Source of the DNA: Eutreptiella sp. 'Long Island Sound 2002'
Taxonomy: Eukaryota > Euglenozoa > Euglenophyceae > Eutreptiales > Eutreptiaceae
Direction: 5' to 3'
NCBI GenBank assembly: GCA_964036045.1
Contig: OZ038401.1
Location: 33,904,397 to 33,968,396 of the forward strand
DNA length: 64,000 nt
The position numbers and the translations under genes were made by a program. Below the pieces are notes generated by a model. It was not told the origin of the DNA. It was given only the letters and a program-made list of their open reading frames with translations, and ran no database searches. The stretch's first letter is position 1, and every line of letters begins with the position of its first letter. This document shows, piece by piece, positions 1 through 56,211 of this stretch.

Positions 1-1131
1 CACACCAACCACAGACCACCAACCACAGACCACCAACCACAAACCACCAACCACAGACCACCAACCACAGACCACAAACTAGAGACTAAAGACCACAGAC
101 CACAGACCACAAACCACCAACCACACACCACAGACAATAGACCACGCACCACAGACCAACCACAGACCACCAACCGCAGACCACCAACCACAGACCACCA
201 ACCACAAACCACCAACCAAAGACCACCAACCATAGACCACAAACTAGAGACTAAAGACCACAGACCACAGACCACAAACCACCAACCACACACCACAGAC
301 AACAGACCACGCACCACAGACCAACCACAGACCACCAACCGCAGACCACCAACCACAGACCGCAGACCACATACCACAGACCAACCACAGACCACCAACC
401 ACAGACCACCAACCGCAGACCCTCAACCACAGACCACAGCCCAAAGACCACACCAAAGACCACAAACTAGAGACTAAAGACCACAGACCTCAGACCACAC
501 ATCACCAACCACACACCACAGACAACAGACCACAGGCCACAGACCACACACCACACACCACAGACCACTCACCACGGGCCACCGACCACACACCACAGAC
601 CACGGACCACAAACCACAGACCGCAGAGCAAAGACCACAAACCACAGCCTAAAGACAACAGACCACAGACCACAGACCACCAACCACACACCACAGACCA
701 CACACCACAGACCAACCACAGACCACCAACCGCAGACCACCAACCACAGACCGCAGACCACATACCACAGACCAAACACAGACCACCAACCATAGACCAC
801 CAACCACAGACCACCAACCATAGACCACAAACTAGAGACTAAAGACCACAGACCACAGACCATCAACCACAGACCAAAGACCAAAGACCACAAACCAAAG
901 ACCACAAACCACAGACTAAAGACCACAGACCTCAAACCACAGATCACCAACCACACACCACAGACAACAGACCACAGACCACAAACCACACACCACACAC
1001 CACAGACCACTCACCACAGGCCACCGACCACACACCACAGACCACAGACCATAGACCACAGACCATAGACCACAGACCACCAACCACGTACGATAGACCG
1101 CAGACCATAGACCACATACCAGAGACCAGTT
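1..1131. repeat. GACCACA heptamer minisatellite, left block
   Basis: The block is made almost entirely of a degenerate heptamer, ACCACAG/ACCACAA, broken by a longer recurring phrase (CAAACTAGAGACTAAAG at about 77, 242, 464 and 831), so a higher-order unit of a few hundred bases is superimposed on the heptamer. All three minus-strand frames stay open for long stretches and would give Trp/Val/Cys/Gly-rich peptides. That is a consequence of the repeat and is not evidence of a gene. Seen directly; no function can be assigned. Confidence 0.95.
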
Positions 1132-1320
1132 TTCTCCATGTCATACGGGCCACTCGGGCTAGAAAAACTTTCCCCCAGGAAGGTGTTCCGGCGACGTTCG
1201 AATAAATGGTTCTGGCGGTGTTCAAATCTTGAACACCTAAAAACACCCGAACGTCGCCGGAACGTCGCCGGAACAACTTGCTGGAACGTCGCCTGAACAA
1301 CTTTTATTGCCCCCTCCTTT
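1132..1320. repeat. Non-heptamer segment with 16-bp perfect inverted repeat
   Basis: A complex segment interrupts the heptamer array. GTTCCGGCGACGTTCG at 1185-1200 and its exact reverse complement at 1248-1263 can form a hairpin with a 47-base loop. The core CGACGTTC/GAACGTCG recurs several times between 1188 and 1300 and again near 2698-2712, which suggests a small dispersed element (a MITE or foldback) inserted in the array. No terminal duplication could be fixed because the array itself is repetitive. Confidence 0.7.
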
Positions 1321-1712
1321 GCAAGCACAGACCACAGACCACAGACCACAGACCATAGACCACAGAGCACCAACCACAGACCACAGACCACAGACCACGC
1401 ACCACACACCACACACCACAGACCGCAGACCACTGAGCACCAACCACAGCCCACAGACCATAGACCGCACACCACACACCACAGACCACAGACCACAGAC
1501 CACAGACCGCAGAGCACCAACCACAGCCCATAGACCACAGACCGCAGACCACAGACCACAGACCATAGACCATGGACAACCAACCATAGACCGCACACCA
1601 CACACCACAGACCACAGATCCACAGACCACAGAGCACCAACCAGAGACCACACACCACAGACCACAGACCACCAACCACAGACCACAGACCACACACCAT
1701 GGACCACACACC
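1321..1712. repeat. GACCACA heptamer minisatellite, right block
   Basis: This continues the heptamer array after the interrupting segment, with the same ACCACAG unit and CACACCACACACCACAG variants. It ends at about 1712, where complex sequence resumes. Open frames across it on both strands are repeat artefacts. Confidence 0.95.
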
Positions 1713-2260
1713 AGATCATCTACTGTGGGGTTCTCGGGTTCGCCCCAGCCCTTCAATCCAACGTGACAATATAAACTCCTACCCCCTTTATTGGCGCGGG
1801 GCATGCACACATGCTATGACATTGCATGCAAACATACCGTACAAAAATATCTTTCATGATACCTGCACAGTGAAGCAAGCACGGGGGGAAGCAGGAGAGA
1901 AGGGGGACAGACTCAACAGACTCAACTGACCCACAACCCCCACAAGGGCCTACCCTCCCCCCGGGGGGGGGGTTGAAGACTGACAACACCCGAGACTCCG
2001 CTAGACCCCCCCCCCCCCTAGGGTAGGACGGAACCTAAGCAAAGGCCTGGGCTAGGCCCTAGGTCGGGAGCCTGGGTTTTGGAAGGGAGAGTGAAAGAAA
2101 ACCAAAAACCATTGCTAATCACCCGCCATCATCAATTAGAAAAATGTGCCCAAGCGCCTGCAGCAGTGCGCCCCGCCACCGCCCACGCCCGATGGGAGGC
2201 TGCCACCCCACCCGTTGCTTGCCTTTGCCCGAGCCGCCGCTCCGCTTGATCCGCTTCTGG
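1713..2260. other. No gene recognised
   Basis: Complex sequence with poly-G (about 1962-1971) and poly-C (about 2007-2019) runs. Short open frames do not resemble a known family. I see no RNA gene or clear promoter here. Confidence 0.5.
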
Positions 2261-8511: not shown

Positions 8512-9479
8512 GTGGCGGGCCCACAGGAGTCCTGCAGGGCTGAAATGTACGGCGCAGCCATTAGCGTAGCCATTGCATCTGACATTGACACCAAATATAT
8601 CAACAATATGGCCGTCACAAAATGCGCTCACCCCCGACCCACGCACGAATGTTCCGACGCTGACATCCGACACAAAGTGTACGACCAAATGCAGGACAAA
8701 CCAGTCGCCGCAGAGTGGATCGCCAGCCACCGCCTTGAGATAGAGGCCCGTCACGCACATGAACGCGAACAAATTCGGCGCAATGGGGAACTAGACCTGC
8801 TCGCCAAGATAGCTACACGCCTACCATTACTAGACTACGATCCCGAGCATCCCGAAGACATTGCTATACCACCCGCACTCCGGCGCAAAAATGGATCCTC
8901 CAACAGAAGAGTGTTGCCACTTTCGATGGTGTGCACTGGTTATCCGAGCCCCCGATGCTCAGGGACCGACGCATGCTCTGGGTTTCAATGGGTCTCGGGC
9001 TAGGTACGATGGGACGGTACGGGCGCGCCGTGGGACTACACCACCCCCAAATGTCTCCCTTTTCCCCTCCACCACGGCACCACTGTCCACAAAGGCCTCT
9101 TACGCTGCATGCGCTGGAAAGTCGCATTTCACAACATGTGGCTGAGCACCTTGGGACCGTGGCAAGATACAGAAACCGAATTCTGGTAGAGGGCCTCGGC
9201 TGCGGACCTGATACGGTAACTGAATGGTGGCAGAGGGCCTCGGCGCCGGACCTACACCACGTGCCCCGCCTTCCCATTCCACGGTCCCTATGGGACCACA
9301 TCGCTCCAGCACTGCGGGTAGACCTCAGGGAGCGTGTGGCCTAGCACTAGTACCATGCCGTACATGGCCTATGCGAAATGCGCGGCCGCGAACCAATTCG
9401 GTGCAATGGGGAAGTAGTCTTGCTCGCCAAGATAGCCGCACGCCTACCATTGCTAGACTACCATCCCAAGCATCCTGAA
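8512..9479 (+). pseudogene. LINE 3' end: RNase H tail and C-terminal region
   Basis: The frame from 8512 reads like the end of a LINE RNase H domain: an Asp in AIASDIDTKYINN, then AAEWIASHRLEIEAR and REQIRRNGELDLLAKIATRL, the usual 'pSHr...rN...D.lA' ending. A downstream frame ends LPIPRSLWDHIAPALRV just before 9342. Beyond it a duplicated segment (9351-9479) repeats the REPIRCNGEVVLLAKIA block and leads to element A. Homologous tails lie at 15960-16520 (minus) and 16530-16690 (plus). It is frame-broken and truncated, hence pseudogene. Confidence 0.65.
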
Positions 9480-9484
9480 GACAT
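9480..9484. repeat. Target site duplication GACAT (left)
   Basis: GACAT directly precedes the left inverted repeat of element A and is repeated at 15955-15959 right after the other end. The uninterrupted LINE-tail paralogues have a single GACAT at the aligned place (8857-8861 plus; 16307-16311 minus). Confidence 0.85.
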
Positions 9485-9509
9485 CTTAGGCGTCACAAGT
9501 TGCCCACCC
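9485..9509. repeat. Element A left terminal inverted repeat (25 bp)
   Basis: It starts CTTAGGCGTCACAAG and ends GCCCACCC, identical over 25 bases to the reverse complement of 15930-15954. Confidence 0.9.
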
Positions 9510-9689
9510 TCTAGGACCCCGTATACGCGCGATTTGACAATATTCTACATTTCTACTTTGAGTATGTTATTTGACGTATGTGACCAAAGTTGTTGGCAGA
9601 GCTGTGTGACACCCGTTGAAATACGTGTTGATGTGTTAGCCTTGTGTATACCCGTCTTCTAGTGTGTTGTATTTGACGTTTTTCTGAAG

Positions 9690-9990
9690 CTGGCCGAAAT
9701 TTCGGCCAGGTTTTGGGTAACATTGCAAACAACTATGTGTATATGCAGTTTTTGACCCTTCTGGCCGAAATTTCGGCCAGCTTTTTGGTTTCCTGGTGAA
9801 TAGGCATGATTATTTTCATTTTTCTTAGGGCTGGCCGAAATTTCGGCCAGCTTTTTGGTCTGTTCACTATTCAAGCACTTATATTCTGGTTTTTGGGTGG
9901 GCAGGCCGAAATTTTGGCCAGCTTTTCCTATTGTTGAACATGTAAGCAATTATTTCCCCTTTGAACACACCTGGCCGAAAATTCGGCCAG
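9690..9990. repeat. Five 20-bp palindromes at ~70-bp spacing (element A leader)
   Basis: CTGGCCGAAATTTCGGCCAG, a perfect 20-bp palindrome, occurs at 9690-9709, 9761-9780 and 9831-9850, with one-base variants at 9902-9921 and 9971-9990. Start-to-start distances are 71, 70, 71 and 69 bases, while the ~50-base spacers are unrelated A/T-rich sequences. A candidate 3' splice site (CTTGTCTCAG, ending 10056) lies just before the gene 1 ATG, so the array may sit in a 5'-leader intron or be a promoter/binding array. Confidence 0.9.
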
Positions 9991-10061
9991 CTTGCAATTG
10001 TCGTTGTTCATGAGTATTACACCATACACTCCTACATAACTATTTTCTTGTCTCAGCATTA

Positions 10062-12146
10062 ATGTCTTCTGCTATTACTGTCAATGTTGTACATGCTGCA
10101 GTTACTGGTGCTTTTGCTACTACAGCCAAAGGGCTGTTGCGAAATGCATTACGTGGTGGGACTCTGCAAAAGCTTTTGCAATTCTGCCTCTTCTTGCGGA
10201 AGAATCGCAGGAGCCGGCACTCCCTGACACAGTTGAAGGCCGCCGCCACTGAGAAGAAGCCCCCACGATGGTACTCGACATTTTTGTCACAGTTCCATGC
10301 CCTATACTGCCTGCTGCGCCGTATGGCCCTCCCATACTCTAACTGTGGGTCTGGTTACAACTGGGGTATTATGTCCTGCCGCCAACGCCGTAAGGTAGGA
10401 GTCCTTGGTCAGTGTAACACTAAGCAGGAGTCCATTCACCATCGTGCTGGACTAGCAGCACACAACTTGTGGAACACCATGCAACGTAGGCAAGTTTGTA
10501 TATGGTTTGATAACCTGAGGCGTTACAGGTCGGGAGCTGATCCCCATTCACCCGACTTAACCCTAAATTGTACAGCTGTTGCTGTTTTGCACACTACTGC
10601 CCTACCTGCATACCGGGGTGTGCCGGAGCTGGCCGAAATTGAGGCCAGGGTACCAAAGGTTGCTGATGACATCTTTCGCTCACATAGAGCATTGTTTGAT
10701 CGTATTGATGTTGCCAACCAAGGTATTCAGAGAGTTTGGGTTCGTGCTCCTTTGGATGTTGCCAGAAAAAATGTTCGTTCCCTCAACTAGAGACCCTTTT
10801 TCTTGTCTAAGCTCCGCTCCGGCACACACAAAGAGCTTTTGCAACTCGTGGTTGATTTGTCATGTGTGGAACACCGCACCAGACACTGTGTTCCGCTGCT
10901 TGTGGACATGAAAATACACTTTGCCCTACTTAAGCTGTGTTATGGTGCTGCTTATGTTCCCTGGAATGTACCACAATTACTGTTGGGTTTTCCTTTGGTG
11001 TACGGAGTATGGCATAGCTATAAGTATTGCGTTGAATTGATCTACAGGGCGTTCCTGCCGTTCATTAAGTTTTTGGAGCAGGGGAACAGCCTTCAGGTTG
11101 GGTCTATCCTCCCTCGCAAGGTCAAGGTCATCCATATGGAGAAGACGTTGCTTGGACTCATGCTAGCCACATCGTTCAATAGAGGCAGACTAGATGAGCG
11201 CGTCACTTCCCTGCTCAATAGCCAGCGGGACCTGACACCCATTCAGCGCAAGGGTTTGCGTATGTTATTAGCCCTTAAGGCTTTGCTGTACACATACTGT
11301 CCAGCTGCTTTCAGCATTGGGACTTTGGTTCGTGAGTGCAACTGGGAGGGACGGGGGGCAGGTTCCGGTATTGTAGCTAAGCAGGCACTTGCGATGTCCC
11401 TACTGCTCATGCTGAACATCCTAAAGCCCGAGGAACAGTTAACCACGGAGTATGTGAAAACCACCGCTGTTGCTCTTTTGTTTTGGAGTCAGTGGCATTC
11501 CGCCACCCTAGGGTGTATCCACTCTGAGGAGCTGGGTGAGGCACTTCTGAGTCGGTTCTCAGCCCACTGTCGCCGCAACACTGCCTGTACTAGTGTCCAA
11601 CAGTCGTCTGATTTATTTCTGACACTTCCCCCTGTCCAACCGGGAGAGAAAGTTTTGCGTGGTGTGCTGACTGAGAGATCCGTGGCAATGTTCTCTGCCA
11701 ATCTTAAACAATTCATCTTGACAGCCCATACACAGAGCCTGCCCATTTGTGTTCCCGTTCCGGACTATAAAGTTGAGGTGAGAAGACTGGATGCAGTTGA
11801 GGATTTGACGTTTCCCGGTACCATGTCTAGGACACGAATCACCACAGACCGTTTAAAAGTGGTTCTGTTGCATGCAATGCAAAATCTGGTTGCGCGTACC
11901 AGGGTTCCTGAGGGTGTTGAGGATTTTTTACAGACAAATGCACCTGCCCGCACTGCTGCCGAGCAAGGGGTGTTGCGTACTGCACATGCTTCTATTCGCG
12001 CTGCCAACCGTGCAACGCCTGCTGCTGCTGCTGCTGCTCCTGGTGGAATTGCCTTGCCCCCAAAGCCACCCCCGAAGCCCCGAGCCAGAGGCCCCCCAGT
12101 ACCCCCCCCCGGGCCCCCCCCGCCCAGTACCCGCCCCCGCCCTTGA
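10062..12146 (+). CDS. Element A gene 1: unknown ~694-residue protein with in-frame TAG
   Basis: ATG at 10062; an in-frame TAG at 10788-10790 is followed without frame change by RPFFLSKLRSGTHKELLQ and 447 more codons, whose first possible start is only TTG. In the second copy (49052-49775) the same position is CGG, giving an uninterrupted SLNRRPFFLPELR, so both parts belong to one protein. The N-terminal third is basic (FLRKNRRSRHS); the middle is Leu-rich and helical (MLLALKALLYTYCPAAFSIG). After about residue 650 an Ala run and a Pro-rich segment end at TGA. An alternative frame past the C run (about 12100-12125) reads DDSIAVDSCDSDQDIDCDAD, an acidic tail, so the true C terminus may extend to about 12290. 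No known domain recognised. Residues ELAEIEAR (10626-10649) are encoded by a diverged copy of the palindrome. Confidence 0.7.
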
Positions 12147-12307
12147 TGATTCCATTGCTGTCGACTCTTGTGATAGTGACCAGGATATTGATTGTGATGC
12201 AGACAGCGTTGCCTCCTTTGAAGCCCTAGATGAGGCGGAACACATCGGTGGGTTCTGCCACGCATTGCCAGTGATTTTGGTGTGTCTATTTGCTTTTTCA
12301 TGTTTTT

Positions 12308-12466
12308 CTGGCCGAAATTTCGGCCAGGCTTGTTGTTTTGTCATATGGCTACCCCCAGAACACGAATGACTTCAGGTTCTGGCCGAAATTTCGGCCAGCC
12401 TCTCAGAATGGTATTTGTACACAGTGGTTTGACATGCAGAGCAGTGCTGGCCGAAATTTCGGCCCG
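12308..12466. repeat. Three palindromes between genes 1 and 2
   Basis: CTGGCCGAAATTTCGGCCAG at 12308-12327 and 12379-12398, and a one-mismatch copy at 12447-12466. Spacings are 71 and 68 bases, matching the leader array. They lie after the likely end of gene 1 and before the ATG of gene 2 at 12586. Confidence 0.9.
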
Positions 12467-12585
12467 GTTTTCCGAATTTCCTGTCAGGCAGTCCGTTTTG
12501 GTCCTTTTTTGGTTGATCTGTGCTTGTTATTTGCTATCTGGGAACTCTCCCCTTCAAGAAATGTTGCCCTGTAGCCCTTTATTTT

Positions 12586-15173
12586 ATGACTGAGCCTGGA
12601 GCGGTATCGCAGGACATGGCTGTTTCGCCAGATGGTGAGCCTGCAGCAGACAATGGGCAATCTCAAGTGCAATCCCAGTCTCAAGAGGACCAGGCGAGCA
12701 CAGAGGGACTTCAAAAGAAGCCTAAGGCCGCACCAAAGAAAAATTCATCATCCTCCATCAAGTTATCATACTGGGTTACGTCAACGACGAAAATAAAGGT
12801 TCGGTGGGCTCAGATTATTATCGACCACGACCGAAAATTTGGGCAGGTCCGTAGGATTTCGGATGATCGCGTGCAACGCCGCTACGACGATCTGAAGGCA
12901 GCCCCGCCTGTGGATTACATCCAGGATCTTCTTTTTTATAAAGTCACTCGTATGTGTGTTGTGGTATTCTTCTCGATAGTACCGTTTTCGCGTCTGAATT
13001 TTCGACCGTGCTGTTACGAATATCCCTGTTGCACAGCCACTCGCTGGGTTCTGTTGGGGGGTCAGCATGTTTACACTGCTGCCCAAAAACACAAGACCGA
13101 ATTTGAGATGAAAAATATGGAGACTCCGGATTGGACCTTGGTATTTGGTGGTCATGAAGTCAAACAGGACTGCCCCCTGCGGACTAGGCGCCGGCTTGCA
13201 GGCTTACATCAAATCCAGACCACTGCTGGCTCAGCATCCACCACATCGGAGCGAATGTCCCTACTCTTGGATAGGCATGAGGATGAGGATGCCAATGAGT
13301 ACACCCTGTACCATCACATTACTGTTATGCTTGAAGAGTGTGGTGTTACTGCCGAGGAAGGCACTGTGGTGTGTTTCATTTATTAATTCGGTTTTGTCGA
13401 TCGACCTGGCCGAAATTTCGGCCAGCTTCTGTCTTCCACATGTTCTCCTGTGCAGAGTGCTGTTGCCAAACGGTGGGGTGGCGTTGGGCGTTTGGTGAAA
13501 TTTGTGGGTCTTCCTTCAGTAGACGCCATGGCAGCCATGGAAAAGCGTGGACTGCATCCCGCACTGGGTACGTTCAAGGAACTGGAAGGCATCACGCCTG
13601 ACCGACTTCGCGAGATGGTAGGTTACATGGATCGGACAAAAAGTACCCTACCTGGTCTCAAAAAAATTATAAAAGATGTTAAAAAGGCCCAGATGTGGTC
13701 CTGGCACATTTTGCATCCCGAGGCGGCTACCAATGGGCTTGTGAACAACACCAGAGGTATGTTTTGGTCAAACAGGGGTTTGTATTCGAATAAATCGACC
13801 GACCTGGCCGAAATTTCGGCCAGCTTGTGTGTCGTTCAATTAATGCACAATAGGGGCCCACCCTGTGCTACCACCTGTCTGCAGCTACACTTGGTACTAT
13901 CGAGATGGCCAAAAGGCAGTGCGCTATTGCATCACACCTGAAGGTAGCCTATGGCAGTTGGACCTGGACTGAAGAAAACCCCTGGCCCCCGTGGTCAGCA
14001 GTAATTAAGGCCCCTCTTTGGAAGGAACCCAAATATGAGGGGTTGCGGGGATTGTTGCAGAAGCCTGTTGCTAAGCCTGTTTGTGAAAGATCTGATACTG
14101 GTCTGGTCAGTATCCAGTGTGCTAGGGAGTCCCTCGTTGAGACAAGCACAGGCAAACTCATTGCAGAGTCAGGCCGTGTGGAACTGATGGCAATGCGTTG
14201 TGGAGTCCCTGTTCCCAGTATCATTAGTTCACTGCCCTTTGCTGCTTGTATCATTGAGGTGCCCCGCCTCTATACAGCTGGTTTGCATAACCTGGTTGCG
14301 CAGCTGCTTTTGTCCGGTGTGCCTGTGTTCATTGCGGGTGAGTCTGCTGATGTGAAAGCCACTGTTGCTGCTTTGAAGGCCACTGTGGCTGAGGATATGT
14401 ATCAGTGTGATGTTGCACTTTACAATTTGTCAAGCAAGACCCCGCTGTACACTTCTACGTCCCATCTGGTTTCCATTTGTTCTGCCACTGCCTTTGATAA
14501 CAGGCTTCCCCGTTACGTGGCTTTTACTGAAGGACCCATGTCGTCTGTGATGCCTGTTGAAATATTCTCATTTCTTTTGAGCCTGGTTCCGGTCCCAGAA
14601 CGGGCAGGCAACTGGTTTTTGCTGGGGACTCTGTCTGTGTATTTTGCAAGCATGATGTCTACCACATTTTCCAAGGACTGTAATGTTGTGTGTGCCCTTT
14701 TGGGTGAGGAGACTGTTGTGCCCGATGACTTTGTTCAGCTCATCAGAGCAGGTATCACCAACGCCGACACGTGCCCCCCCAAGTCATGGGAGGATGTGTA
14801 CCACGACTTGGGGGCAGGTTTTCCTGTGGATTGTTCTGGGGTTAGGTATGTAGATGAGGGTCCTGAGGAGCAAGATGGGGAGGCAGAGTCGCAACCAGAG
14901 ACACAGACTCCAAAGAAGAAACCCAAAACTGCCCCTGCCCCCTCACCCAGTGGCACGCACTGCGCTCAGGCCACCCCAGCTTCCTCCTCAGGCACTGTGG
15001 CCCCTACTGGCAAAGGTATGAATACTTTTGTGAATCATTTTTCACCATCCCAGGGTGGAAACACACAGTCACAGAACTCTGCCACTGCCAAGCCTGGTGC
15101 TGCAGCCCCTGCCAAGCCTCCTGCTAACACAGGTGCTAAGAAGCCCCGTGCATCTGGTCTGCGCAAGCGCTAA
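12586..15173 (+). CDS. Element A gene 2: 761-aa protein with GGQH (ParB/DGQHR-like) motif, four exons
   Basis: I join exons 12586-12949, 13037-13368, 13456-13756 and 13885-15173. The sum is 2286 nt, an open frame of 761 codons plus TAA. Phases fit at every junction: splice 1 gives FYKVTPTRWVLLGGQHVY, splice 2 gives EEGTVSAVAKRW, splice 3 gives NTRATLGTIEMAKRQ. Near residues 112-136, VDYIQDLL...RWVLLGGQHVYTAA resembles the DGQHR/GEHR motif of ParB-N/DndB-like folds. The N terminus is Gln/Ser/Lys-rich and the C terminus is a Pro/Lys tail ending SGLRKR, suggesting nucleic-acid contact. The central region (about 370-640) is unrecognised. The ParB-like reading is an inference from a short motif. 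Copy 2 preserves parts of the last exon. Confidence 0.75.
12950..13036 (+). other. Gene 2 intron 1 (87 nt, possibly optional)
   Basis: Donor C|GTATGTGTG, acceptor CCTGTTGCACAG. The intron is in frame and has no stop, so retention would insert 29 residues between KVT and TRWVLL. Removal brings the GGQH motif closer to VDYIQDLLF. It has no exact palindrome. Confidence 0.6.
13369..13455 (+). other. Gene 2 intron 2 (87 nt) containing the palindrome
   Basis: Donor GTG|GTGTGTTTC, acceptor TTCTCCTGTGCAG. It contains a stop (TAA at 13384) and one perfect CTGGCCGAAATTTCGGCCAG at 13406-13425, 30 bases before the acceptor. Confidence 0.75.
13757..13884 (+). other. Gene 2 intron 3 (128 nt) containing the palindrome
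   Basis: Donor AGAG|GTATGTTTTG, acceptor CCACCTGTCTGCAG. One perfect palindrome lies at 13804-13823. Splicing is phase 1 and restores the frame exactly into ATLGTIEMAKRQ. Confidence 0.8.
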
Positions 15174-15212
15174 TGCCAGTCCTGCTGCTCCTATTGCCTG
15201 TCAGCATGAAGT

Positions 15213-15536
15213 CTGGCCGAAATTTCGGCCAGCATGCAGTCTTCAGCCTCTTCAGCCTTTGATTATTGTGTTTCCCCATAGGCACTGCAAAAGTCTGCTT
15301 TGATTCGTCAGGTGGCAAGTATTTGCTTGTAATTGAGTATATTATGTTGCACACCCTGTTCAAATGTCACTGCTCCTGTGTTCCTTGCTCATGTGTACTG
15401 TCTTAGGTACCCATTTCAGTGATCATATTCGGAGTTTCGATGGACCTGGCCGAAATTTCGGCCAGCTTAGGCCTGTCTGTCAAATAGGACCATGTGTTTG
15501 GACATTTTTCGAAGAGCTGGCCGAAATTTCGGCCAG
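15213..15536. repeat. Three palindromes downstream of gene 2
   Basis: Perfect CTGGCCGAAATTTCGGCCAG at 15213-15232, 15446-15465 and 15517-15536. The last two are again 71 bases apart. No further gene is evident before the right end, so these sit in the 3' region of the element. Confidence 0.9.
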
Positions 15537-15929
15537 GTTGGTTAAAATAGGAAATACAAGTACATGCTTTGGGATAGTTTTTTGTGTGCTTTAATGAAAG
15601 ATATGTTTGGGGTTCCCACATGTGTGGTGTATAGGGGGGTTCTGTGATCAACTCGAACAAAGGGGAGAGAAAAATAGGCACCCCCCCCCCCCACACTGGA
15701 ATGCAGTGGTCTAAATGTAAAACAACACTATATTTTGGTGATTGAATGTCTTTATTTTGAAAATCTGTGTGTTTCCAGAAATGCAAATAATGGCATATAT
15801 TTGAAATACACACCTTGCTTTTGCATGTTGCCACCAGGGGGGTTTGGGTACCCAAAAAATAACACCCCTTTTCACATACTTTCCCCCTCATTACAACATG
15901 GACTTCCGTGGGCCATAGCGCCAGGTGGG
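15537..15929. other. Element A right non-coding region
   Basis: A/T-rich sequence with a short C run near 15681, a possible 3' UTR, and no coding frame. It ends at the right inverted repeat. Confidence 0.5.
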
Positions 15930-15954
15930 GGGTGGGCAACTTGTGACGCCTAAG
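15930..15954. repeat. Element A right terminal inverted repeat (25 bp)
   Basis: It starts GGGTGGGCAACTTGTG and ends CGCCTAAG; exact reverse complement of 9485-9509. Confidence 0.9.
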
Positions 15955-15959
15955 GACAT
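15955..15959. repeat. Target site duplication GACAT (right)
   Basis: GACAT follows the right TIR and is in turn followed by CGCGATGTGTGGCGGGCC, the continuation seen in the empty-site paralogue on the minus strand near 16300. Confidence 0.85.
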
Positions 15960-16520
15960 CGCGATGTGTGGCGGGCCTACCACCACTCCAACGGGAAAAT
16001 GGATCCTCCAACGGAAGCATGTTCGTGCCACGGTCCCCAGGTGCTCAGCAACATGTTGTGAAATGCGACTTTCCAGCGCATGCATCGTAACATGCGTTTG
16101 TGGACAGTGGTGCGCCAAGTGGGACTGCGGCGCGCCAATACCGTCCCATTGTACCTGGCCCGAGACCCATTGAAACCCAGAGCATGCGTCGGTCGCTGAG
16201 CATCGGCAGCCAGGATATCCCGTGCGCACCGTCGAAAGTGGCAACATGCTTCCGTTGGAGGATCCATTTTCCCGCTAGAGTGGTGGTAGGCCCGCCACAC
16301 ATCGCAATGTCTTCGGGATGCTTGGGATCGTAGTCTAGCAATGGTAGGCGTGTAGCTATCTTGGCAAGCAAGACTACTTCCCCATTGCGCCGAATTTGTT
16401 CGCGGCCGCGCATTTGGAATAGGCCATGTAGGGCATGGTACTAGTGCTAGGCCATACGCTCCCTGAGGTTTACCCGCAGTCCTGGAGGGATGTGGTCCCA
16501 TAGGGACTGTGGAATGGGAA
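15960..16520 (-). pseudogene. LINE 3' tail, minus-strand copy with internal inverted duplication
   Basis: Read on the minus strand, 16410-16050 encodes REQIRRNGEVVLLAKIATRL, a homologue of the tail at 8770-9100; before it lies LPIPQSLWDHIPPGLRV (about 16447-16500). The segments 15957-16025 and 16247-16313 are inverted copies of each other (about 66 bp, few mismatches, containing AAAATGGATCCTCCAACGGAA), so the locus was rearranged around the element A insertion. Frames are broken. Confidence 0.65.
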
Positions 16521-16529
16521 GGCAGGACA

Positions 16530-16700
16530 CATGGTGTATGCCACTTTCGACCGTGCGCACTGCGTATCCTGGCTGCCGATGCTCGGCGACCAACGCATGC
16601 TCAGGGTTTTGGGTAGACCTCAGGGAGCTTGTAGCCTGCCACCAGTACCATGCCCTACATGGCCTATGCCAACTGCGTGGGAAACTCACCATGCCCCCTC
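16530..16700 (+). pseudogene. LINE 3' tail, short plus-strand copy
   Basis: A third copy of the tail. It reads VDLRELVACHQYHALHGLC (16612-16670). Where the copies at 9342-9353 and (minus) 16432-16446 have TAG-CAC-TAG-TAC-CAT, this one has TGC-CAC-CAG-TAC-CAT, so the second TAG corresponds to CAG (16643-16645). Confidence 0.6.
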
Positions 16701-31147: not shown

Positions 31148-31158
31148 GGGAGGCACCA

Positions 31159-49051: not shown

Positions 49052-49775
49052 ACCTACAGCCAAAGGGCTGGCTGGAAATGCTTTATGTGGTGGAAATCTT
49101 TAGAAGCTTTTGCACTTGTACCTCGTGTTTAGGAAGAATCGCAAGTCCCGTCATTCAATTGCCGATATGAAGGCGGCGTCTTTGCAGAAGAAGCCTCCAC
49201 GATGGTACCCAACTTTTTTGCAACAGTTCCATGCCCTGTACATTCTTCTACGTCATATGGCCCTCCCTTTGTGGGTTGCGGTAAAATTGGGGAATTATGC
49301 CTTACCGACAGCGACGCAAAGTAGGAGTCCTTGGGCAGTGCAACACCAAGCTAGATTCCATTCACTGGCGTGCTGGACTTGCAACTCACACCTTTTGGAA
49401 CTCCATGCTTCGTCTCCAACTTTTTACATGGTTTGATGATTTTAGGTGTTATAGGTAGAACGTTGATCCCCATGTGCCTGATTTAACTTTGAATTGTACT
49501 GCAGTTGCAGTGTTGCACACGAGTGCGTTACCCGCCTACTCGGGTCTTCCAAAGCTGGCCGAAATTGACGCCAGGGTACCAAGGGTTGCATATGACATCT
49601 TCCCCTCAAAATTTTCACTATTTGGTCGTATTGATGTCGCCAACCGAGGTGTTCGGAGAGTATGGGCTCGTGCCCCTTGGGATGTTGCAAGACAAAATGT
49701 ACGTTCTCTAAACCGGAGACCCTTTTTTCTTCCCGAGTTGCGGTGTGGCACACGAAAGGAGCTGTTGCAGCCAAT
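49052..49775 (+). pseudogene. Element A copy 2: gene 1 fragment (5' part)
   Basis: Aligns with 10120-10835 (e.g. AAGAAGCC(C/T)CCACGATGGTAC; HTxALPAYxGxPxLAEI). The position of the copy 1 TAG is CGG here (SLNRRPFFLPELR). It contains frameshifts around 49280-49450. The embedded half-palindrome CTGGCCGAAATTGACGCCAG is at 49555-49574. Confidence 0.8.
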
Positions 49776-50140
49776 GCGGTCCTTAAGGAACCAGATTTTT
49801 TTTTTGCTAAGGACCGCCCTTCAGGACCGCTCCAAGGGACGACCAGCTGCCAACCGCCACCAACCGCCAACCACCACCCGCCACCAACCACCAACCACCA
49901 ACCGCCGCCAACTGCCAGCAGCGACCAACCGCCAAGTGCCAACCACGGCCAACCGCCACCAACCACCAATCACCAACCACCCACCGACGCCAACCGCCAC
50001 CAACCACCAGTTGCCAACAGCCGACCGCCAACCGCCAACCGCCACCAACCATGGTTGAGCACATGGAGTGCCCGCGGGCTTTTTTGGGAAACCATACCGG
50101 AACACTTTTTTTTTCCCGTTCAAGACCGCCCTAGTTGCAG
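49776..50140. repeat. Insertion with CCAACCGCCA minisatellite
   Basis: It interrupts gene 1 of copy 2 exactly where copy 1 is continuous (GAGCT(T/G)TTGCA on the left, GATxTGxCATGTGT on the right). The core (49840-50055) is a degenerate CCAACCGCCA/CCAACCACCA array, similar in style to the heptamer array at 1-1712. Confidence 0.75.
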
Positions 50141-51190
50141 CTTGTGTGTGATCTGACATGTGTTGAAACCGCACTAGACACTATGTACCACTGCTTGTAG
50201 ACATGAAAATACACTTTGCACTATTGAAGCTCTGTTACGGTGCAGCCTATGTGCAGTGTAATGTACCGCAACTACTTTTGGGGTTTCCCTTAACATATGG
50301 GATCTGGCACAATTAGAAGTTTTGTGTTGACCTTATTTATAGGGCCTTCCTGCCGTTCATAAGGAATAGGGGAATAGCCTACTGGTTGGTTCTATCCTGC
50401 CTCACATCCCCCATTCCCAGTATCATTAGCTCACTGCCCGTTGCTGCCTGCATCATTGAAGTGCCAAGGCTCGATAAAGTAGGCCTGCACAATCTCGTCG
50501 CTCAACTGGTGTTGTCGCATGTACCTGTGTTCATTGCCATTGGGCCTGCTGATGTAAGAGCCACTGTGGCTGCCGTGAAGACCACTGCTGCTGAGGATAT
50601 GTATCTGTGTGATGTTTTGATATACAATTTGTCTTCCGAGACCCCAACACAACATTGCAGTCACGGGAAAATCTAGAAGACAGCGCGCTAGCAAAATGCA
50701 CACACAGAGTCCCAAGCACAAACTAGTTCCCTGCAGTTCCAGGGACAGGCACCAAGCTCAATAGATACGAGAAGATTTCGATAGGTAGCACGGAGGACAT
50801 GGGTCCCTCACGATAAACCACATACCGTGAAAGCTTCTTTTCAAAGGTTGCACGGTAGCAAATTGAAAGCACATGGGAACTGGAATATGGATATGGATAT
50901 GTTGGCCCTTTCGGGTCAAGAGACTACTGTGCTTGATGAGTTTGCTCAGTCCTTGAGAGCCTCTATCACCAACACGGACACTTGTCCCCCCAAGGCCTGG
51001 AATGATGCGTATGATGACTTGAGCCGTGGGTTGCCTGTTGATTGTACGGGTGCTAAGTATGTTGATGAGGATACAGAGGAGGATGAAGACCATGCAGAAC
51101 CACAAGCAGAGGGCAAAACCACACGCACAGGAAAAAACCAAGACCTGCCCCTGCCAAGGCTGCTGACCCCACTGGCGCCATGCAATGCAC
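50141..51190 (+). pseudogene. Element A copy 2: gene 1 piece joined to gene 2 pieces, one inverted
   Basis: 50160-50400 matches 10870-11110 (GACATGAAAATACACTTTGC shared). At about 50405 it jumps to the gene 2 last exon (CCCAGTATCATTAG, as at 14212). 50655-50735 is the reverse complement of about 14620-14690 (GGGACTCTGTxTGTGxATTTTGC). 50915-51190 resumes forward and matches 14700-14960. Deletion plus local inversion is the simplest reading. Confidence 0.75.
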
Positions 51191-51570
51191 ATAGGACAGC
51201 CCCTTGCATTCTCAGGGATCCCCAACATAGGGGAACAAAATCAGAAGTGGCTGCCTCACCCCTGCCTTCTCGGGGGCCCAAAAGAGGGCGGAAGTGCTAC
51301 GGCACTCTTGCGTTCTCGGGGGTCCCCTACGGAAGGGGACAAAAACGAAAGTGGCCCACAAAAGGGCGGAAGTGCTACGTCACCCCTGCGTTCTGAGGGG
51401 TCCCCAAACAAGGGGACAAAGTCAAAGGTGGCCCACAAGTGGGCGGAAGTGCTCCGTAACCCCTAGGTTCCCGGGGGTTCCCAAAAAGGGGGTCAAAAAT
51501 GGCCCGCGCCGGGTGCGTGGAAAAAATCCCATAGTGGGGGACCTTAAGGGAGGGGTCTGTAGTGAAACCT

Positions 51571-52135
51571 AGTAAAAAAAAATTTTTTTTAAAAGTTTTT
51601 TTTTTACTAGGTAACTGTTTACTAGGTAACACGTTTTTTTACTAGGTATTGGGAACCTAGTAAAAAAAAAGTTTTTTTTTTTACTAGGTTTCAAAACCTA
51701 GTAAAAAAAAAATTTTTTTTACTAGGTTTTCAAACCTAGTAAAAAAAAATTTTTTTTTTTTACTAGGTTTCAGAACCTAGTAAAAACAAAATTTTTTTTA
51801 TTACTAGGTTACTGGGTAGCCACCTTGCCCACTTGTGGGCCACTTCTGATTTTGCCCCCCGATCTGCAGCGGTGGGGATCCCCGATACGGCAGGGGTGAG
51901 GTAGCCACTTTGCCCACTTGTGGGCCACTTCTGATTCTGCCCCCCGCTCTGCAGCGGTGGGGCTCCCCGATATGGCAGGGGTGAGGTAGCCACTTTGCCC
52001 ACTTGTGGGCCACTTCTGATTTTGCTCCCCGCTCTGCAGCGGTGGGGGTTTCGGAACCTAGTAAAAAAAAAGTTTTTGTTTTTACTAGGTTTTAGAACCT
52101 AGTGAAAACAAAAGTTTTTTTTTTTACTAGGTTAC
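51571..52135. repeat. CCTAGTA-A/T-TACTAGG palindrome cluster with inverted ~75-bp tandem units
   Basis: Seven near-perfect palindromes of about 38 bases (arms AACCTAGTAAAA / TTTTTACTAGGTT). Between the fifth and sixth lie three tandem units containing GCCCACTTGTGGGCCACTTC. Confidence 0.9.
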
Positions 52136-52168
52136 TGGGCCTCCCCTTTTTCCTTTTGCCCTTCGTGT

Positions 52169-53221
52169 TTGCAACAATGTCCTCCAAGCAAAGCTCTGCG
52201 GAAGGCACTGAGGCAGGCACGTACTTTGAACGCGGCGTCCATTGATATGATCTATGCGCCCCCCTTGCTCGTGGCGCAGATTTATAATAAGCGCAATGCA
52301 CATTGGGTGCTGCGCTTGTTGTTGGTTTCCCCAACACGTACTTTCTTGTGCCTCGTGTTCGATCCGCTGTGTTACAAGCCGTACATAGCGGGTGCAAACA
52401 CCGAGGAGTTGGCAATAGTGAACCTCATTGCCGAACAAGAAGGCATTAAGGCAAGGGCGCTGAAGAGGTGGGACAAGTTTTTGGGTGAGTTCGGCAGTGT
52501 AGCTTTTGCTATAGCCCCCCTCTACTCCACCTTCCTACATCAGGACGACGGTGTGAGCTGCCATCCTGCCTGCCTTATGATGCTACATTGCCTTTTGTCT
52601 AGGCGTGTTGTCAACGGTAGCATCCAACTTCCACAAGACAGATTGTGGTTGTTGCGTGAGATTGCACAGGCAGCTTTGCACTATCGCAGTTCTCCGCCTG
52701 CCCCCCCTATTGAGACCACACCCAGTTGGGCCTTGGCACGGATGTATGCTACGCCCTATTGTCTACCCAGCCGTTCGTCGTGCTTTTTTTGCGACGACAC
52801 AGCCCACATCACGTGCCCTGAATGTGGAGTTTATCAGTGTGCCCTGCATGCTTCCGGTTTCTGTTCCACGGAGATATGTGTGGCATTGCGCAAATGGAAT
52901 GTGCAATTTACTGCCACACTGGCATGCATTGTGTTGGCATTCGCCTTGGGTGACCGGCTTGTGGTTGACAAGCCGCCTTCTGTAGATGAGGTCCGTCCAA
53001 AGGTGGTGATCCGTGGTGAAGAATTTTTTGTTCCAGAGCATTACCCCAAAGATGCCTCTGGGAGATTGGAGTATGACAAAAATCTAATCAAAGAGTTGGA
53101 AGAAAAGACCACGGGCGTGATTCGCAACATGTGCAAACACAACCCTCCCTCTGCACAACCCACCTACAAAGACAAGAAGTCGGACCTCATCTACAAGCGC
53201 GTGTTTTGCGACTTCATATAA
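52169..53221 (+). CDS. Element C protein, Cys-rich, unknown family (~350 aa)
   Basis: The open frame starts before any in-frame ATG (first Met at SIDMIYAPPLL, about residue 27), so the start may lie in an upstream exon. Intact to TAA at 53219. The centre holds a treble-clef or B-box-like Cys/His cluster: CFFCDDTAHITCPEC, YQCALHASGFC, STEIC (about 52779-52880), which probably binds zinc. The C-terminal ~90 residues are charged (EEFFVPEHYPKDASGRLEYD). Coding quality is good with no broken codons, in contrast to the decayed host copy, so element C is younger. Function unknown. Confidence 0.65.
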   Translation: MQQCPPSKALRKALRQARTLNAASIDMIYAPPLLVAQIYNKRNAHWVLRLLLVSPTRTFLCLVFDPLCYKPYIAGANTEELAIVNLIAEQEGIKARALKRWDKFLGEFGSVAFAIAPLYSTFLHQDDGVSCHPACLMMLHCLLSRRVVNGSIQLPQDRLWLLREIAQAALHYRSSPPAPPIETTPSWALARMYATPYCLPSRSSCFFCDDTAHITCPECGVYQCALHASGFCSTEICVALRKWNVQFTATLACIVLAFALGDRLVVDKPPSVDEVRPKVVIRGEEFFVPEHYPKDASGRLEYDKNLIKELEEKTTGVIRNMCKHNPPSAQPTYKDKKSDLIYKRVFCDFI

Positions 53222-53700
53222 AGCACGCGTGTGTGCACCTCATATATGTATATATATATTTATCATGTAAATGCTCCTTCTTTTCTTGAGCCTCATTTTA
53301 TTTTTGCTGACCTTGCAATACACGGTTTGGCCCGGGTGGGGCGCCACTTACACAAGTGGCCTGGAATAGACCAGGGGGCACCATGCCCTTAAACATAAAT
53401 ACCACCTACCGTTGACCCCCCCCCCCCCCCCCATAAACTTGGTTTTTTTTGTTCAAATTCAAGTCCAAATTTGTCACTACCTAGTAACCTAGTAAGGCAA
53501 AAATTTTTTCAATTTTTTGCTTTTTTTACCTAGTAAAAAAATTTTTTTTTAAAAAAAAATTTTTTTTACTAGGTTTTGCTACATTTTACTAGGTTTTGCT
53601 ACATTTTACTAGGTTTTGCTACGTGCATACTAGGTTTCACCAAATGCCCCTTAAGGGAGGTCCTGAATAAAAAAAAATCCTTTTTGGTCCTAAAGGACCA
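53222..53700. repeat. Right part of element C: poly-C and ACTAGG blocks
   Basis: Poly-C (about 53417-53432), CCTAGTAACCTAGTAAGG (53480-53497), palindromic A/T blocks, and three tandem TTTTACTAGGTTTTGCTACA units (53566-53625). Confidence 0.8.
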
Positions 53701-53925
53701 CCATTCTCCCTACTGGCTGCCCGGCGAGTGGATGTGCTGTAGGAATTTAGGATGCCCGCTTCCGCGAGCCCCTTTGGGGCTTCGGCGCAGGCGGGGAACC
53801 TGGCGGCTGTTGAAGCGCGTCAACCCCTATCCGCGCCAGCGCTGCGTCACGGGCGCCCCCGAGACGGCCCCGCTGGCCCGCCTCCAGGCAGCCCTGGGAG
53901 CCGTGCGGCCCTACATCCTCCCATC

Positions 53926-54136
53926 TGGAAAGGGTTTGAATACTTTTTTGAACCATTTTTCACAATCACAGGGTGGCAACACAAAGTCACAGCGTGGTGC
54001 CACTACCAATGCACAACCCAAGCCGGCTGTTGCCGCGTCTCCCAAGAAGGCTCGTCCTCAAGTTTGCGGAAGCGCCAATATTATTACATTTCGGTTGTAT
54101 TCAGTTGTCAATATGAAGGCTAGCCGAAATTTCGGC
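53926..54136 (+). pseudogene. Element A copy 2: gene 2 C-terminus and mutated palindrome
   Basis: Reads GKGLNTFLNHFSQSQGGN, matching GKGMNTFVNHFSPSQGGN of copy 1 (15013), then a diverged Lys/Pro tail. CTAGCCGAAATTTCGGCCAA (54117-54136) is the trailing palindrome with one change in each arm. Confidence 0.85.
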
Positions 54137-54140
54137 CAAC

Positions 54141-56211
54141 ATTTGCATCTCCAGTGCATATTGCTGTTGTTCGGGTGGACGAGGTACAAGTTTGCCTTGC
54201 AGCTACATGGGCACGTGGCCTAGTGGCAAGGGGGCAAGCGGGTATCTGGGTCCCACTTCTTGGATAGAAGCCTAGAGAGGGTGACGTTGGTCATGGCGGC
54301 CACGGTACCCCGTCAACCCCGTGCTGCCGTCCCAAACTCACCTCCGCCAAGGCCAGCCCTGCCGTCGGGGCAGACAATACTGTTAGGGCTGGTGGCACAC
54401 ACACAATCCTCTCTACTGCCGCTTCGTCCCCCCACCGCCAACACACGTTGCTGCTGCTAGGGCACCCACGTCCACCACCACCACCCCCACCTGTCCATCC
54501 ACCTGTGAGGCGGTGCCTTCGTCTGAGCCTGAACACGGAGGTGTTTGGCCCACTAGCTATCCAAAGGCAGCACATGAGAGAAAATCTTTCGGCTCGACAG
54601 AGGTGGAGGTCGACACACAAGGTTGTTTCCATGCGGCATTGCCCTCGGTCCGGGATGGGGGGGACCACAACAATTACGGGTGATGCCGTGTGTTGGTTGC
54701 AAGGGCGGGCTTGGGTTTCGGATTGGGTTGTGGGTCACCACGGGCCATCTGAGTCAGGGTGTGCATGCCAACATTGTCCCAGCACCAAGAAAGCATGATT
54801 GCCATCACCTAGGTCTATTTGGGAAGCGACCCCGCATCGACACATATGAGTGCGCCAAGCTGCACCAAAGTGATGCCATGGCCATGCACTTCCTTTGGGA
54901 AAGCGCCAGTCAACAATGAAGAGTCCAAGCACCCACATCTGATTACCATCGTACCTCCAGAAAGGCTTTTGCCATTAAGGCATGGCGGTTGCCTACCGCA
55001 ATAGAGAGCACCTCCTCTTTCCTTGTATATGAGCTATGGGTCTGCGCCTTGTGCCGTGTCTAACAGGGATCCAATGTATCATATACATGGGTCGCCCACT
55101 TTCCAAGAACTATCTTGAGTACTCGTGAACATTTCGAGTCAGTCCCCCCCCCCCCCCCAAAAGGAAACAGCCTCGTGTGTAGGATCCAATGGCCATTTCC
55201 AACACCCCCACCCACCACTAGGCACCAAGGGGGAGCAAGTGGAAAAATAAAGGATAAAGAGGTCCAAAACATTTTGTGATGGTCACCAAATAAGAAGTTT
55301 CTGATTGAGAAACTTGCTTTTTTTGCCCTGAGGGCTGAAATCACTGAGGCCTTTCTGGGCCAGTGTTCTCCCAAGAAACCCCTGCCCTTGGTGTCCCAAT
55401 GGACAACTAGATGAAACAGACGTCCAAACATGATCATGTTGGGTTTTAACAATTACCGTCAAGAATTCATTTGAGATTCTGCCTGAATGGCCAATCTTGC
55501 TGTGTGGGTGACTGTCCACCCAAGCCCCCCCCCCACCCCCACCCCCACACTCAGCCCCCCCCCCCCAAATTCCATATGCTCAGAAACATCCCAGAAGGAT
55601 TGTTTCGTCATCAGTTCGTAGCCACAACAGCAACAACATGAGTTTTCAATTTTCCCGCCTTTCAATACCAGGTGCTCACAACTGTGTAGTGAGCTCGGGC
55701 CTTGATTTCTTCAGAGATGCTGCAACAGCTGTTTAGGGGCTGTTAACCATGCCACCACCGTCCAAGGGCAGTTCCAGGGGCTGTTTGTACATAATGTGTG
55801 TACCATGCTGTCCTGGGTAAAATCCACCAAATCTGAGAAGTCTTTGAATTTTCTAAGCATTCTTGTGTATCCATGAGCCAGTGCCCCCCAAAATGGTCGG
55901 GAACCCAATGTGGCACCTAGCACCTTTTGCCCCATTGCCACCTGCTTGGGCACCCTTCTGGCCACGGTTCGGGTGCTTTCACATAGTACCATCACGATAC
56001 GTATGTGCTCCCTAAGGCACTATCACCCGCCTCTCCTACCAAGCACAGATGACATGCATGCCCAAAATCTGAACCTAGTCCATGCCCCATGAATGAGGAC
56101 TTCCTAAATGGGTGGTGATGTCAAACAACAACAATGCCCCCAATACCACAAAGTATACTATGGAAGGCAATTTTTGGCCTTGTGCAGCACTGTGAGTGAC
56201 ACTCTGGATCA
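54141..56211. other. No firm gene; coding-like patches
   Basis: A possible coding patch reads EPEHGGVWPTSYPKAAHERK (about 54527-54586) and, in the same region, GFRIGLWVTTGHLSQGVHAN (about 54713), but frames are short and broken. 55130-55600 holds C runs; 55600-56200 is unique non-coding sequence. Confidence 0.35.

What the first reader, a model, noticed from the sequence alone, without database searches (positions are those of the whole stretch)
9690..15536. A perfect 20-bp palindrome repeated 12 times with ~70-bp phasing
CTGGCCGAAATTTCGGCCAG lies upstream of gene 1 (5x), between genes (3x), in two introns and downstream (3x), minus one site counted in each intron: 13 sites including near-perfect variants. 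Within clusters the spacing is 68-71 bases although the spacers are unrelated. Conserved site plus fixed spacing suggests phased binding sites, replication iterons or processed RNA hairpins.
Basis: seen in the sequence. Interest (0 to 1): 0.88.

Follow-up and report, generated by a model that had tools for sequence, protein, structure and literature searches.

The report
Phased palindromes in a eukaryotic transposon
A jumping gene in a large eukaryotic genome carries fourteen copies of one 20-letter mirror-image DNA signal, about 70 letters apart wherever they are grouped, and a distant cousin element carries a matching but altered signal at the same spacing, so the signal looks like a docking site that evolves together with whatever binds it.

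Summary
Window 9485-15954 is a 6,470-bp DNA transposon (perfect 25-bp terminal inverted repeats, 5-bp target duplication) with two genes. It holds 14 copies (10 exact, 4 with 1-2 mismatches) of CTGGCCGAAATTTCGGCCAG: five upstream of gene 1, three between the genes, one in each of two of gene 2's three introns, three downstream, one degenerate copy in gene-1 coding sequence. All seven within-cluster gaps are 68-71 bp. The own genome (2.28 Gb) holds 12,533 sites at up to 2 mismatches, against 1 for the reversed pattern. In a diverged non-autonomous copy the palindromes differ by 7% where other non-coding DNA differs by 23%. A subfamily about 46% identical in gene 1 has its own palindrome, CTGGGCGAAATTTCGCCCAG, changed symmetrically in both arms, mostly at 69-70 bp, with spacers no more like ours than shuffles. 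Best explanation: family-specific sites for a dimeric, element-encoded protein that coats the element's non-coding DNA, working like VANC/VANDAL anti-silencing or Spm TnpA. The binder is inferred; no DNA-binding domain was recognised. Site-by-site compensation, expected of RNA hairpins, is nearly absent (1 of 74 changed arm pairs).

The parts
9480..9484 (.). target-site duplication GACAT, left
   Evidence: left and right flanks both align to a paralogous empty site (window 16243-16538, reverse strand) and overlap by GACAT; 5-bp duplications in 6 of 6 copies checked, 5 exact and 1 with one mismatch
9485..9509 (+). left terminal inverted repeat, 25 bp
   Evidence: perfect inverted copy at 15930-15954
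9690..9990 (+). 5' array: five palindromes at 9690, 9761, 9831, 9902, 9971 (spacing 71, 70, 71, 69)
10062..12247 (+). gene 1, the likely transposase (722 aa in relative P0040); this copy has an in-frame TAG at 10788-10790, a frame change in the C-rich tract and, against L025 and L030, a deletion of about 56 bp at 12249/12250
10629..10648 (+). degenerate palindrome (2 mismatches) inside gene-1 coding sequence
   Evidence: counterpart with 3 mismatches at 49555 in the second copy
12308..12466 (+). intergenic array: palindromes at 12308, 12379, 12447 (spacing 71, 68)
12586..15173 (+). gene 2, four exons (12586-12949, 13037-13368, 13456-13756, 13885-15173), 762 aa; candidate accessory or DNA-binding protein; exon model is inferred from sequence, no transcript seen
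   Evidence: GT..AG introns of 87, 87 and 128 nt joining one open frame; homologues
13406..13425 (+). palindrome in the gene-2 intron 13369-13455
13804..13823 (+). palindrome in the gene-2 intron 13757-13884
15213..15536 (+). 3' palindromes at 15213, 15446, 15517 (spacing 233, 71)
15930..15954 (-). right terminal inverted repeat, 25 bp
15955..15959 (.). target-site duplication GACAT, right
49054..54142 (+). second, degraded and interrupted copy of the same kind of element, with palindrome-like sites at 49555 (coding, 3 mismatches) and 54120 (2 mismatches)

Best explanation
The palindromes are family-specific cis-acting DNA sites of a two-gene cut-and-paste-type DNA transposon. A symmetric dimer, most likely encoded by gene 2, binds each palindrome. 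Clusters at about 70-bp spacing at the 5' end, between the genes and near the 3' end, plus single sites in introns, let the protein load all along the element's non-coding DNA. This most likely keeps the element from being silenced and/or assembles it for transposition, while gene 1, the presumed transposase, acts at the separate 25-bp terminal repeats. Shown here: the transposon, its ends and target duplication, the sites, their phasing, their constraint between subfamilies, and the symmetric half-site change with spacing kept. Inferred: that a protein binds, that gene 2 encodes it, that gene 1 is the transposase, and what binding achieves.
For: TIRs and 5-bp duplication with an empty-site paralogue; duplications in 6 of 6 copies, one with a mismatch. 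13 of 14 sites non-coding; 7 gaps of 68-71 bp against at most 4 in 20,000 random draws. Genome-wide 12,533 sites at up to 2 mismatches against 1 for the reversed control. Copies L025, L030 and L031 keep the gaps 71/70/71/69, 398 and 233/71; L025, L029 and L030 keep 71/68. In the diverged non-autonomous copy L026, palindromes differ at 16 of 219 positions against 329 of 1,436 other non-coding positions (P about 1e-8); L026 has no detected match to gene 1 or to the later gene-2 exons, keeps the TIRs and carries 31 sites at up to 4 mismatches, many in duplicated blocks in both orientations. In 20 loci found with P0076 (46% identical to P0040) the commonest perfect 16-bp palindrome is GGGCGAAATTTCGCCC, in 13 of 20 loci; 97 sites lie within 4 mismatches of CTGGGCGAAATTTCGCCCAG, 58 of them with the new G/C pair at positions 5/16 and none matching the A palindrome exactly; 41 of the 44 gaps between 55 and 85 bp are 69-70 bp, while its 5' spacers resemble ours no more than shuffles do (z 1.4). 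A published analogue has the same anatomy: VANC21 motifs in introns, intergenic and terminal non-coding DNA, in one orientation at high density, as tandem repeats that diversify between subgroups (PMC5735166, 12 passages and section 9 seen).
Against: No DNA-binding domain was recognised in gene 2: for the spliced N-terminal part Pfam, NCBIfam, PHROGs, PDB sequences and plasmid tblastn gave no match; scanning 17 relatives gave eight families, each weakly in one member (best E 0.063; a winged-helix family at E 0.19); the last exon has only a chance-level hit and its AlphaFold model is unusable (pLDDT 33). Among recent copies the palindromes have changed as much as other non-coding DNA (36 of 1,080 against 241 of 7,428; the window's own four altered bases are counted again in each comparison that covers them), so resident copies show no constraint; it is seen only between subfamilies. 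In subfamily B only 7 of 97 sites are perfect, against 61 of 104 in A-type loci, and position 15 is variable (G in 54 of 97). Sites were collected by likeness to the consensus. The flanks are asymmetric (T at +22 in 14 of 14 sites, its mirror A at -3 in 3 of 14; 13 window sites plus 54120, coding site left out), which a purely symmetric contact does not explain. Spacing in L026 is looser (62-78). One site is coding. Independent units are few: one diverged copy, and 20 B loci that share ancestry. There are no expression, binding or methylation data.
Confidence: 0.55

Rival explanations
1. RNA hairpins: each palindrome folds in the transcript (8-bp stem, 4-nt loop), or neighbouring palindromes pair, and acts in RNA processing, splicing or small-RNA production.
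For: Stable folds (z -4.3 to -5.2 for three single perfect sites, -2.1 to -2.5 for an altered site, the coding site and two whole introns, -9.6 and -8.3 for two 91-nt two-site units). The C-G to G-C change between subfamilies keeps pairing. In our copy the T-rich flanks lie on one strand.
Against: A perfect palindrome folds by construction, so the folding scores do not test function. Of 74 changed arm pairs over 104 sites, 60 break the pair, 13 are one-sided changes that still pair and 1 is changed on both sides and paired. The sites of a family share one sequence, which pairing alone would not require. L026 carries array blocks in both orientations.
Confidence: 0.17
2. Passive leftovers: one 70-bp unit was tandemly duplicated and palindrome segments spread inside the element by duplication or conversion, without present function.
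For: Spacers within the element retain weak similarity. Sites 13406, 13804 and 15446 share longer flanks. Recent copies show no extra constraint. L026 shows that array blocks duplicate easily.
Against: Palindromes diverge three times less than neighbouring DNA between subfamilies; both arms change together between subfamilies with spacing kept while spacers reach background.
Confidence: 0.13
3. Binding sites of a host factor (activator, insulator or silencing factor) that the transposon exploits or suffers.
For: Nothing here shows that the binder is element-encoded.
Against: Within the window the site occurs only in this element and its degraded relative; subfamilies change both half-sites in step, which suits a co-evolving element protein better than one host factor. 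Genome-wide, only the first listed places were looked at, so sites outside such elements are not excluded.
Confidence: 0.1
4. Transposase-binding array: gene 1 itself binds the palindromes and the roughly 70-bp spacing assembles a large transpososome.
For: Subterminal repeats acting in transposition are known, for instance those bound by TNPA in Spm/En (PMC2613891, passages).
Against: By eye the TIR does not resemble the palindrome; sites are spread through introns and the element's middle rather than only near the ends; the first site is 205 bp from the left end and the last 418 bp from the right.
Confidence: 0.05

Closest known systems
VANC/VANDAL21 anti-silencing system of Arabidopsis Mutator-like elements (PMC5735166)
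   Same: Short family-specific motif concentrated in non-coding DNA (introns, intergenic, terminal), arrayed in one orientation, built as tandem repeats, changing between subgroups; the element encodes the binder as well as a transposase.
   Different: The VANC21 motif is 9 bp (YAGTATTAY), and the words 'palindrom' and 'spacing' do not occur in that paper's main text; here the site is a 20-bp perfect palindrome at about 70 bp. Our proteins match no Pfam family, so homology is not shown.
CACTA elements: Spm/En TNPA and its subterminal repeats; soybean Tgmt* (PMC2613891, passages)
   Same: Transposase plus a poorly conserved DNA-binding protein that recognises repeated motifs differing between subfamilies; in Tgmt* the subterminal repeats can form 14 palindromes.
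   Different: Those sites are subterminal; here they also lie mid-element and in introns. The TIR does not begin CACTA and the duplication is 5 bp rather than 3.
ParB/KorB with parS/OB palindromes (site arrangement recalled; KorB sequence from plasmid R751)
   Same: Several palindromic sites spread over one mobile replicon with an encoded binder; a loose motif resemblance, by eye, in the gene-2 N-terminal part.
   Different: Profile comparison of gene 2 with eight ParB/KorB proteins scored 0.27% probability, inside the range of 13 other R751 proteins used as controls (0.09-0.93%). Homology not supported.
Introners (mobile introns; recalled)
   Same: A repeated sequence is present inside more than one intron.
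   Different: Sites also occur upstream, intergenic, downstream and once in an exon, and in this window are confined to one kind of transposon.

Membership tests
TIR-type (cut-and-paste) DNA transposon | terminal inverted repeats and fixed-length target-site duplication | tested here: met
   25-bp perfect TIRs, 5-bp duplication, empty-site paralogue; 6 of 6 copies checked, 5 exact and 1 with a mismatch
TIR-type (cut-and-paste) DNA transposon | DDE/D-type transposase | tested here: inconclusive
   Gene 1 has near-invariant D282 (20 of 21), H318 (29 of 30) and E493 (32 of 32), but no significant Pfam match and no PDB fold match at E<=0.001; model mean pLDDT 65
VANC/VANDAL anti-silencing system | motif concentrated in introns, intergenic and terminal non-coding DNA | tested here: met
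   13 of 14 sites, P 1.8e-6
VANC/VANDAL anti-silencing system | motif type differs between subfamilies | tested here: met
   CTGGCC.. against CTGGGC.., both arms
VANC/VANDAL anti-silencing system | encoded protein binds the motif and removes DNA methylation | not testable with these tools
   needs binding and methylation assays
VANC/VANDAL anti-silencing system | VANC protein homology (DUF1985/DUF287, named in the paper) | tested here: not met
   no Pfam match to the spliced gene-2 N-terminal part at E<=10, nor to the gene-2 last exon beyond a hit at E 0.22 to another family
CACTA/Spm | TIR beginning CACTA and 3-bp duplication | tested here: not met
   TIR CTTAGGCGTC..., duplication 5 bp
ParB/parS | ParB fold in the encoded protein | tested here: inconclusive
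   not detected: hhalign at control level with a shallow profile (Neff 1.5); hmmscan against Pfam, NCBIfam and PHROGs without match; no structure model of this part was made
RNA hairpin element | compensatory change at individual sites | tested here: not met
   1 both-sides paired change among 74 changed arm pairs in 104 sites; the consensus change between subfamilies is itself compensatory
Replication iterons | array at an origin with an initiator protein | not testable with these tools
   no family recognised among the element's proteins; origin activity cannot be tested here

The most novel reading that the evidence does not exclude
A previously undescribed DNA transposon lineage in which a ~70-bp-phased palindrome array spread over the whole element is a loading platform for an element-encoded dimer that spreads along or wraps the element as one nucleoprotein body, keeping it unsilenced; binder and half-site co-evolve as a lock and key that makes each subfamily act only on its own copies, and non-autonomous derivatives multiply the array to compete for the binder.
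Probability: 0.2. Interest if true: 0.85.

Novelty: new variant of a known kind. Interest (0 to 1): 0.72.

Why it matters
Sequence-specific anti-silencing by a transposon is documented for the Arabidopsis VANDAL elements. This element shows the same anatomy in a high-copy family whose proteins match no Pfam family, with a longer, perfectly symmetric site and a spacing that survives when the spacers do not. Because two subfamilies in one genome carry symmetric variants of the site, site-protein co-evolution becomes directly testable by swapping palindromes and binders between them.

Tried and rejected
Rejected or unsupported: (1) ParB/KorB homology of gene 2, suggested by motif reading; hhalign at control level. 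(2) A viral or phage element: no exact palindrome match and no confirmed relative of gene 2's last exon or gene 1 (in one search, 81 stretches matched a pattern and none was confirmed) in viral contigs, and no DNA match in phages. (3) The 11 exact matches in bacterial genomes: one site per fetched stretch in varied species, taken as chance. (4) PDB fold match for gene 1: none at E<=0.001; PDB sequence hits of its profile are noise (E 2.9 and above). (5) An idea that gene 1 is spliced across the intergenic array: copies L025 and L030 end gene 1 with a stop before the array. (6) A degenerate palindrome in the remaining (first) gene-2 intron of our copy (12990, 8 mismatches): 5.6% of shuffles do as well, not claimed, although translations of a diverged cluster group (P0127, P0130-P0133) and L026 show a near-perfect site there. 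(7) A coding near-match at 12827 (6 mismatches): not claimed.

Limits: the genome search answered twice; no genome count of the B palindrome was obtained. L032-L051 are the 20 loci asked for out of 77 listed matches; the 7 loci with the A palindrome were taken from the start of a capped listing of perfect sites on one contig. Sites in them were counted at up to 4 mismatches. One search counted 7 sites in L027 because of truncated comparisons at the locus end; one search gives 3.

Full report
Observation. The palindrome CTGGCCGAAATTTCGGCCAG occurs 14 times at up to 2 mismatches between 9690 and 15536, ten of them exact, with none found in 100 shuffles even at 3 mismatches. Clusters have start-to-start gaps of 71, 70, 71, 69; 71, 68; and 71. 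Placing 13 sites at random in the non-coding DNA never gave 7 gaps of 68-71 in 20,000 trials.

What carries it. Window 9485-15954 is a DNA transposon: a perfect 25-bp inverted repeat (CTTAGGCGTCACAAGTTGCCCACCC) at both ends, flanked by GACAT on both sides; both flanks align to an uninterrupted copy of the same host repeat at 16243-16538, overlapping by those five bases. Six of six copies examined show 5-bp duplications, five exact and one with a mismatch. It carries two genes on the + strand. Gene 1 (10062 to about 12247) is 722 aa in relative P0040 (267 member sequences). It has distant relatives (31-38% identity, P0091-P0098) on contigs of 1.3-4.7 kb, and near-invariant residues D282, H318, E493, but no significant Pfam match and no fold match; I infer a transposase. 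In this window's copy it is interrupted by a stop and altered near its 3' end; copies without that stop exist among the relatives. Gene 2 joins four exons through GT..AG introns of 87, 87 and 128 nt into 762 aa; the model rests on sequence only. Its homologues (39 and 38 clusters) are all labelled ENA; that they belong to this same genome is my inference from their identity and cluster sizes.

Where the sites are. Five lie upstream of gene 1, three between the genes, one in each of two gene-2 introns, three downstream, one in gene-1 coding sequence: 13 of 14 non-coding (P 1.8e-6). The own genome (2.28 Gb, 2,205 contigs) has 12,533 matches at up to 2 mismatches against 1 for the reversed control pattern. 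Seven loci were fetched from the head of that listing (six elements, one apparently split over two loci); L025 and L030 repeat the whole gap series almost base for base, and L031 repeats it apart from an internal deletion.

Constraint. Among recent copies (six loci, about 94-98% identical in their main blocks) palindromes have diverged as much as other non-coding DNA (36 of 1,080 against 241 of 7,428; P 0.85; the window's own altered bases recur in these counts). That is expected of resident copies and argues against selection on each copy. Against the diverged copy L026, palindromes differ at 16 of 219 positions and other non-coding DNA at 329 of 1,436 (P about 1e-8; aligned blocks above a score cut only). 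L026 is a 3.9-kb non-autonomous derivative with TIRs (one mismatch each) and a TACTA duplication, a first gene-2 exon (67% identity) and no detected match to gene 1 or later gene-2 exons. It holds 31 sites at up to 4 mismatches, largely in duplicated blocks in both orientations; 23 of its 30 gaps are 60-80 bp, though duplicates are not independent.

The decisive comparison. A second subfamily, represented by P0076 (46% identical to P0040), was located in the genome (77 matches listed, 20 loci read, 80-100% identical to P0076). A count of all perfect palindromes in those loci, made without the consensus in hand, put GGGCGAAATTTCGCCC first (13 of 20 loci). Its extended form, CTGGGCGAAATTTCGCCCAG, differs from ours at positions 5 and 16 only, one in each arm, so the dyad is kept. 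Ninety-seven sites lie within 4 mismatches of it (7 perfect, none matching ours exactly; 58 of 97 carry the new G/C pair), mostly just before the gene-1 match and beyond its end, and 41 of the 44 gaps between 55 and 85 bp are 69 or 70 bp; 17 of 20 loci have such a gap. Most B sites are decayed, position 15 is variable, and the B copies share ancestry, so these are few independent events; the point is that A and B agree. Spacers of A and B are no more alike than shuffles (z 1.4). A symmetric half-site change with conserved spacing and background-level spacers is what a dimeric, phased binding array predicts.

Mechanism. I favour sites for an element-encoded dimer, probably gene 2. The anatomy matches VANC21 on VANDAL21: motifs in introns, intergenic and terminal non-coding DNA, in one orientation at high density, evolving by tandem repeats and differing between subgroups (PMC5735166: 12 passages and section 9; PMC10398659: abstract and outline only). 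It also matches in part TNPA of Spm, required for transposition and recognising subterminal repeats, and the soybean CACTA element whose subterminal repeats can form palindromes (PMC2613891, passages). Whether the effect is anti-silencing, transposition or both cannot be settled here. Binding itself is inferred.

Alternatives. RNA hairpins fold well, but any palindrome would; of 74 changed arm pairs in 104 sites 60 are broken, 13 are one-sided changes that still pair and 1 is a both-sides paired change. Passive tandem duplication explains the weak spacer similarity but not the constraint or the symmetric change. The flank asymmetry (T at +22 in 14 of 14 sites) is unexplained; in B copies that position is T in 41 of 97.

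Novelty. The kind of system, a transposon with dispersed sites for its own protein, is known. A perfect 20-bp palindrome with a roughly 70-bp phase and a symmetric switch between subfamilies, in an element without recognised protein families, did not show in four literature searches (listings only, apart from passages of PMC2613891). That is a limited search of an open-access library.

Noticed in passing
window 49054-54142: Second copy of the same kind of element, broken by other insertions; gene-1 pieces within 49054-50406, gene-2 pieces within 50414-51155 and 53925-54142, palindrome-like sites at 49555 and 54120.
   Followed up: partly
L026:2193-6115: Non-autonomous derivative without detected gene-1 sequence but with 31 palindromes (up to 4 mismatches) in duplicated direct and inverted blocks, TIRs and a 5-bp duplication.
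   Followed up: partly
window 10629-10648 and 49555-49574: A degenerate palindrome within gene-1 coding sequence, unchanged from the window in recent copies L025, L029, L030 and L031 (2 differences in L028) but not reflected in the subfamily-B protein P0076.
   Followed up: partly
window 31111-35019: 1,302-aa open frame with a weak UCH (ubiquitin hydrolase) match just above the Pfam cut-off; possibly part of another large mobile element.
   Followed up: no
window 8764-9484 and 15955-16680: Host repeat with open frames, in direct and inverted copies around the insertion; one copy served as the empty-site reference.
   Followed up: partly
window 1-1720: Long satellite-like stretch rich in CCACAGACC-type units, strongly strand-skewed.
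   Followed up: no
gene-1 relatives P0092-P0098: Distant gene-1 relatives (31-36% identity) on 1.3-4.7-kb contigs from JGI and ENA data, so the gene-1 family is probably not confined to this genome.
   Followed up: no
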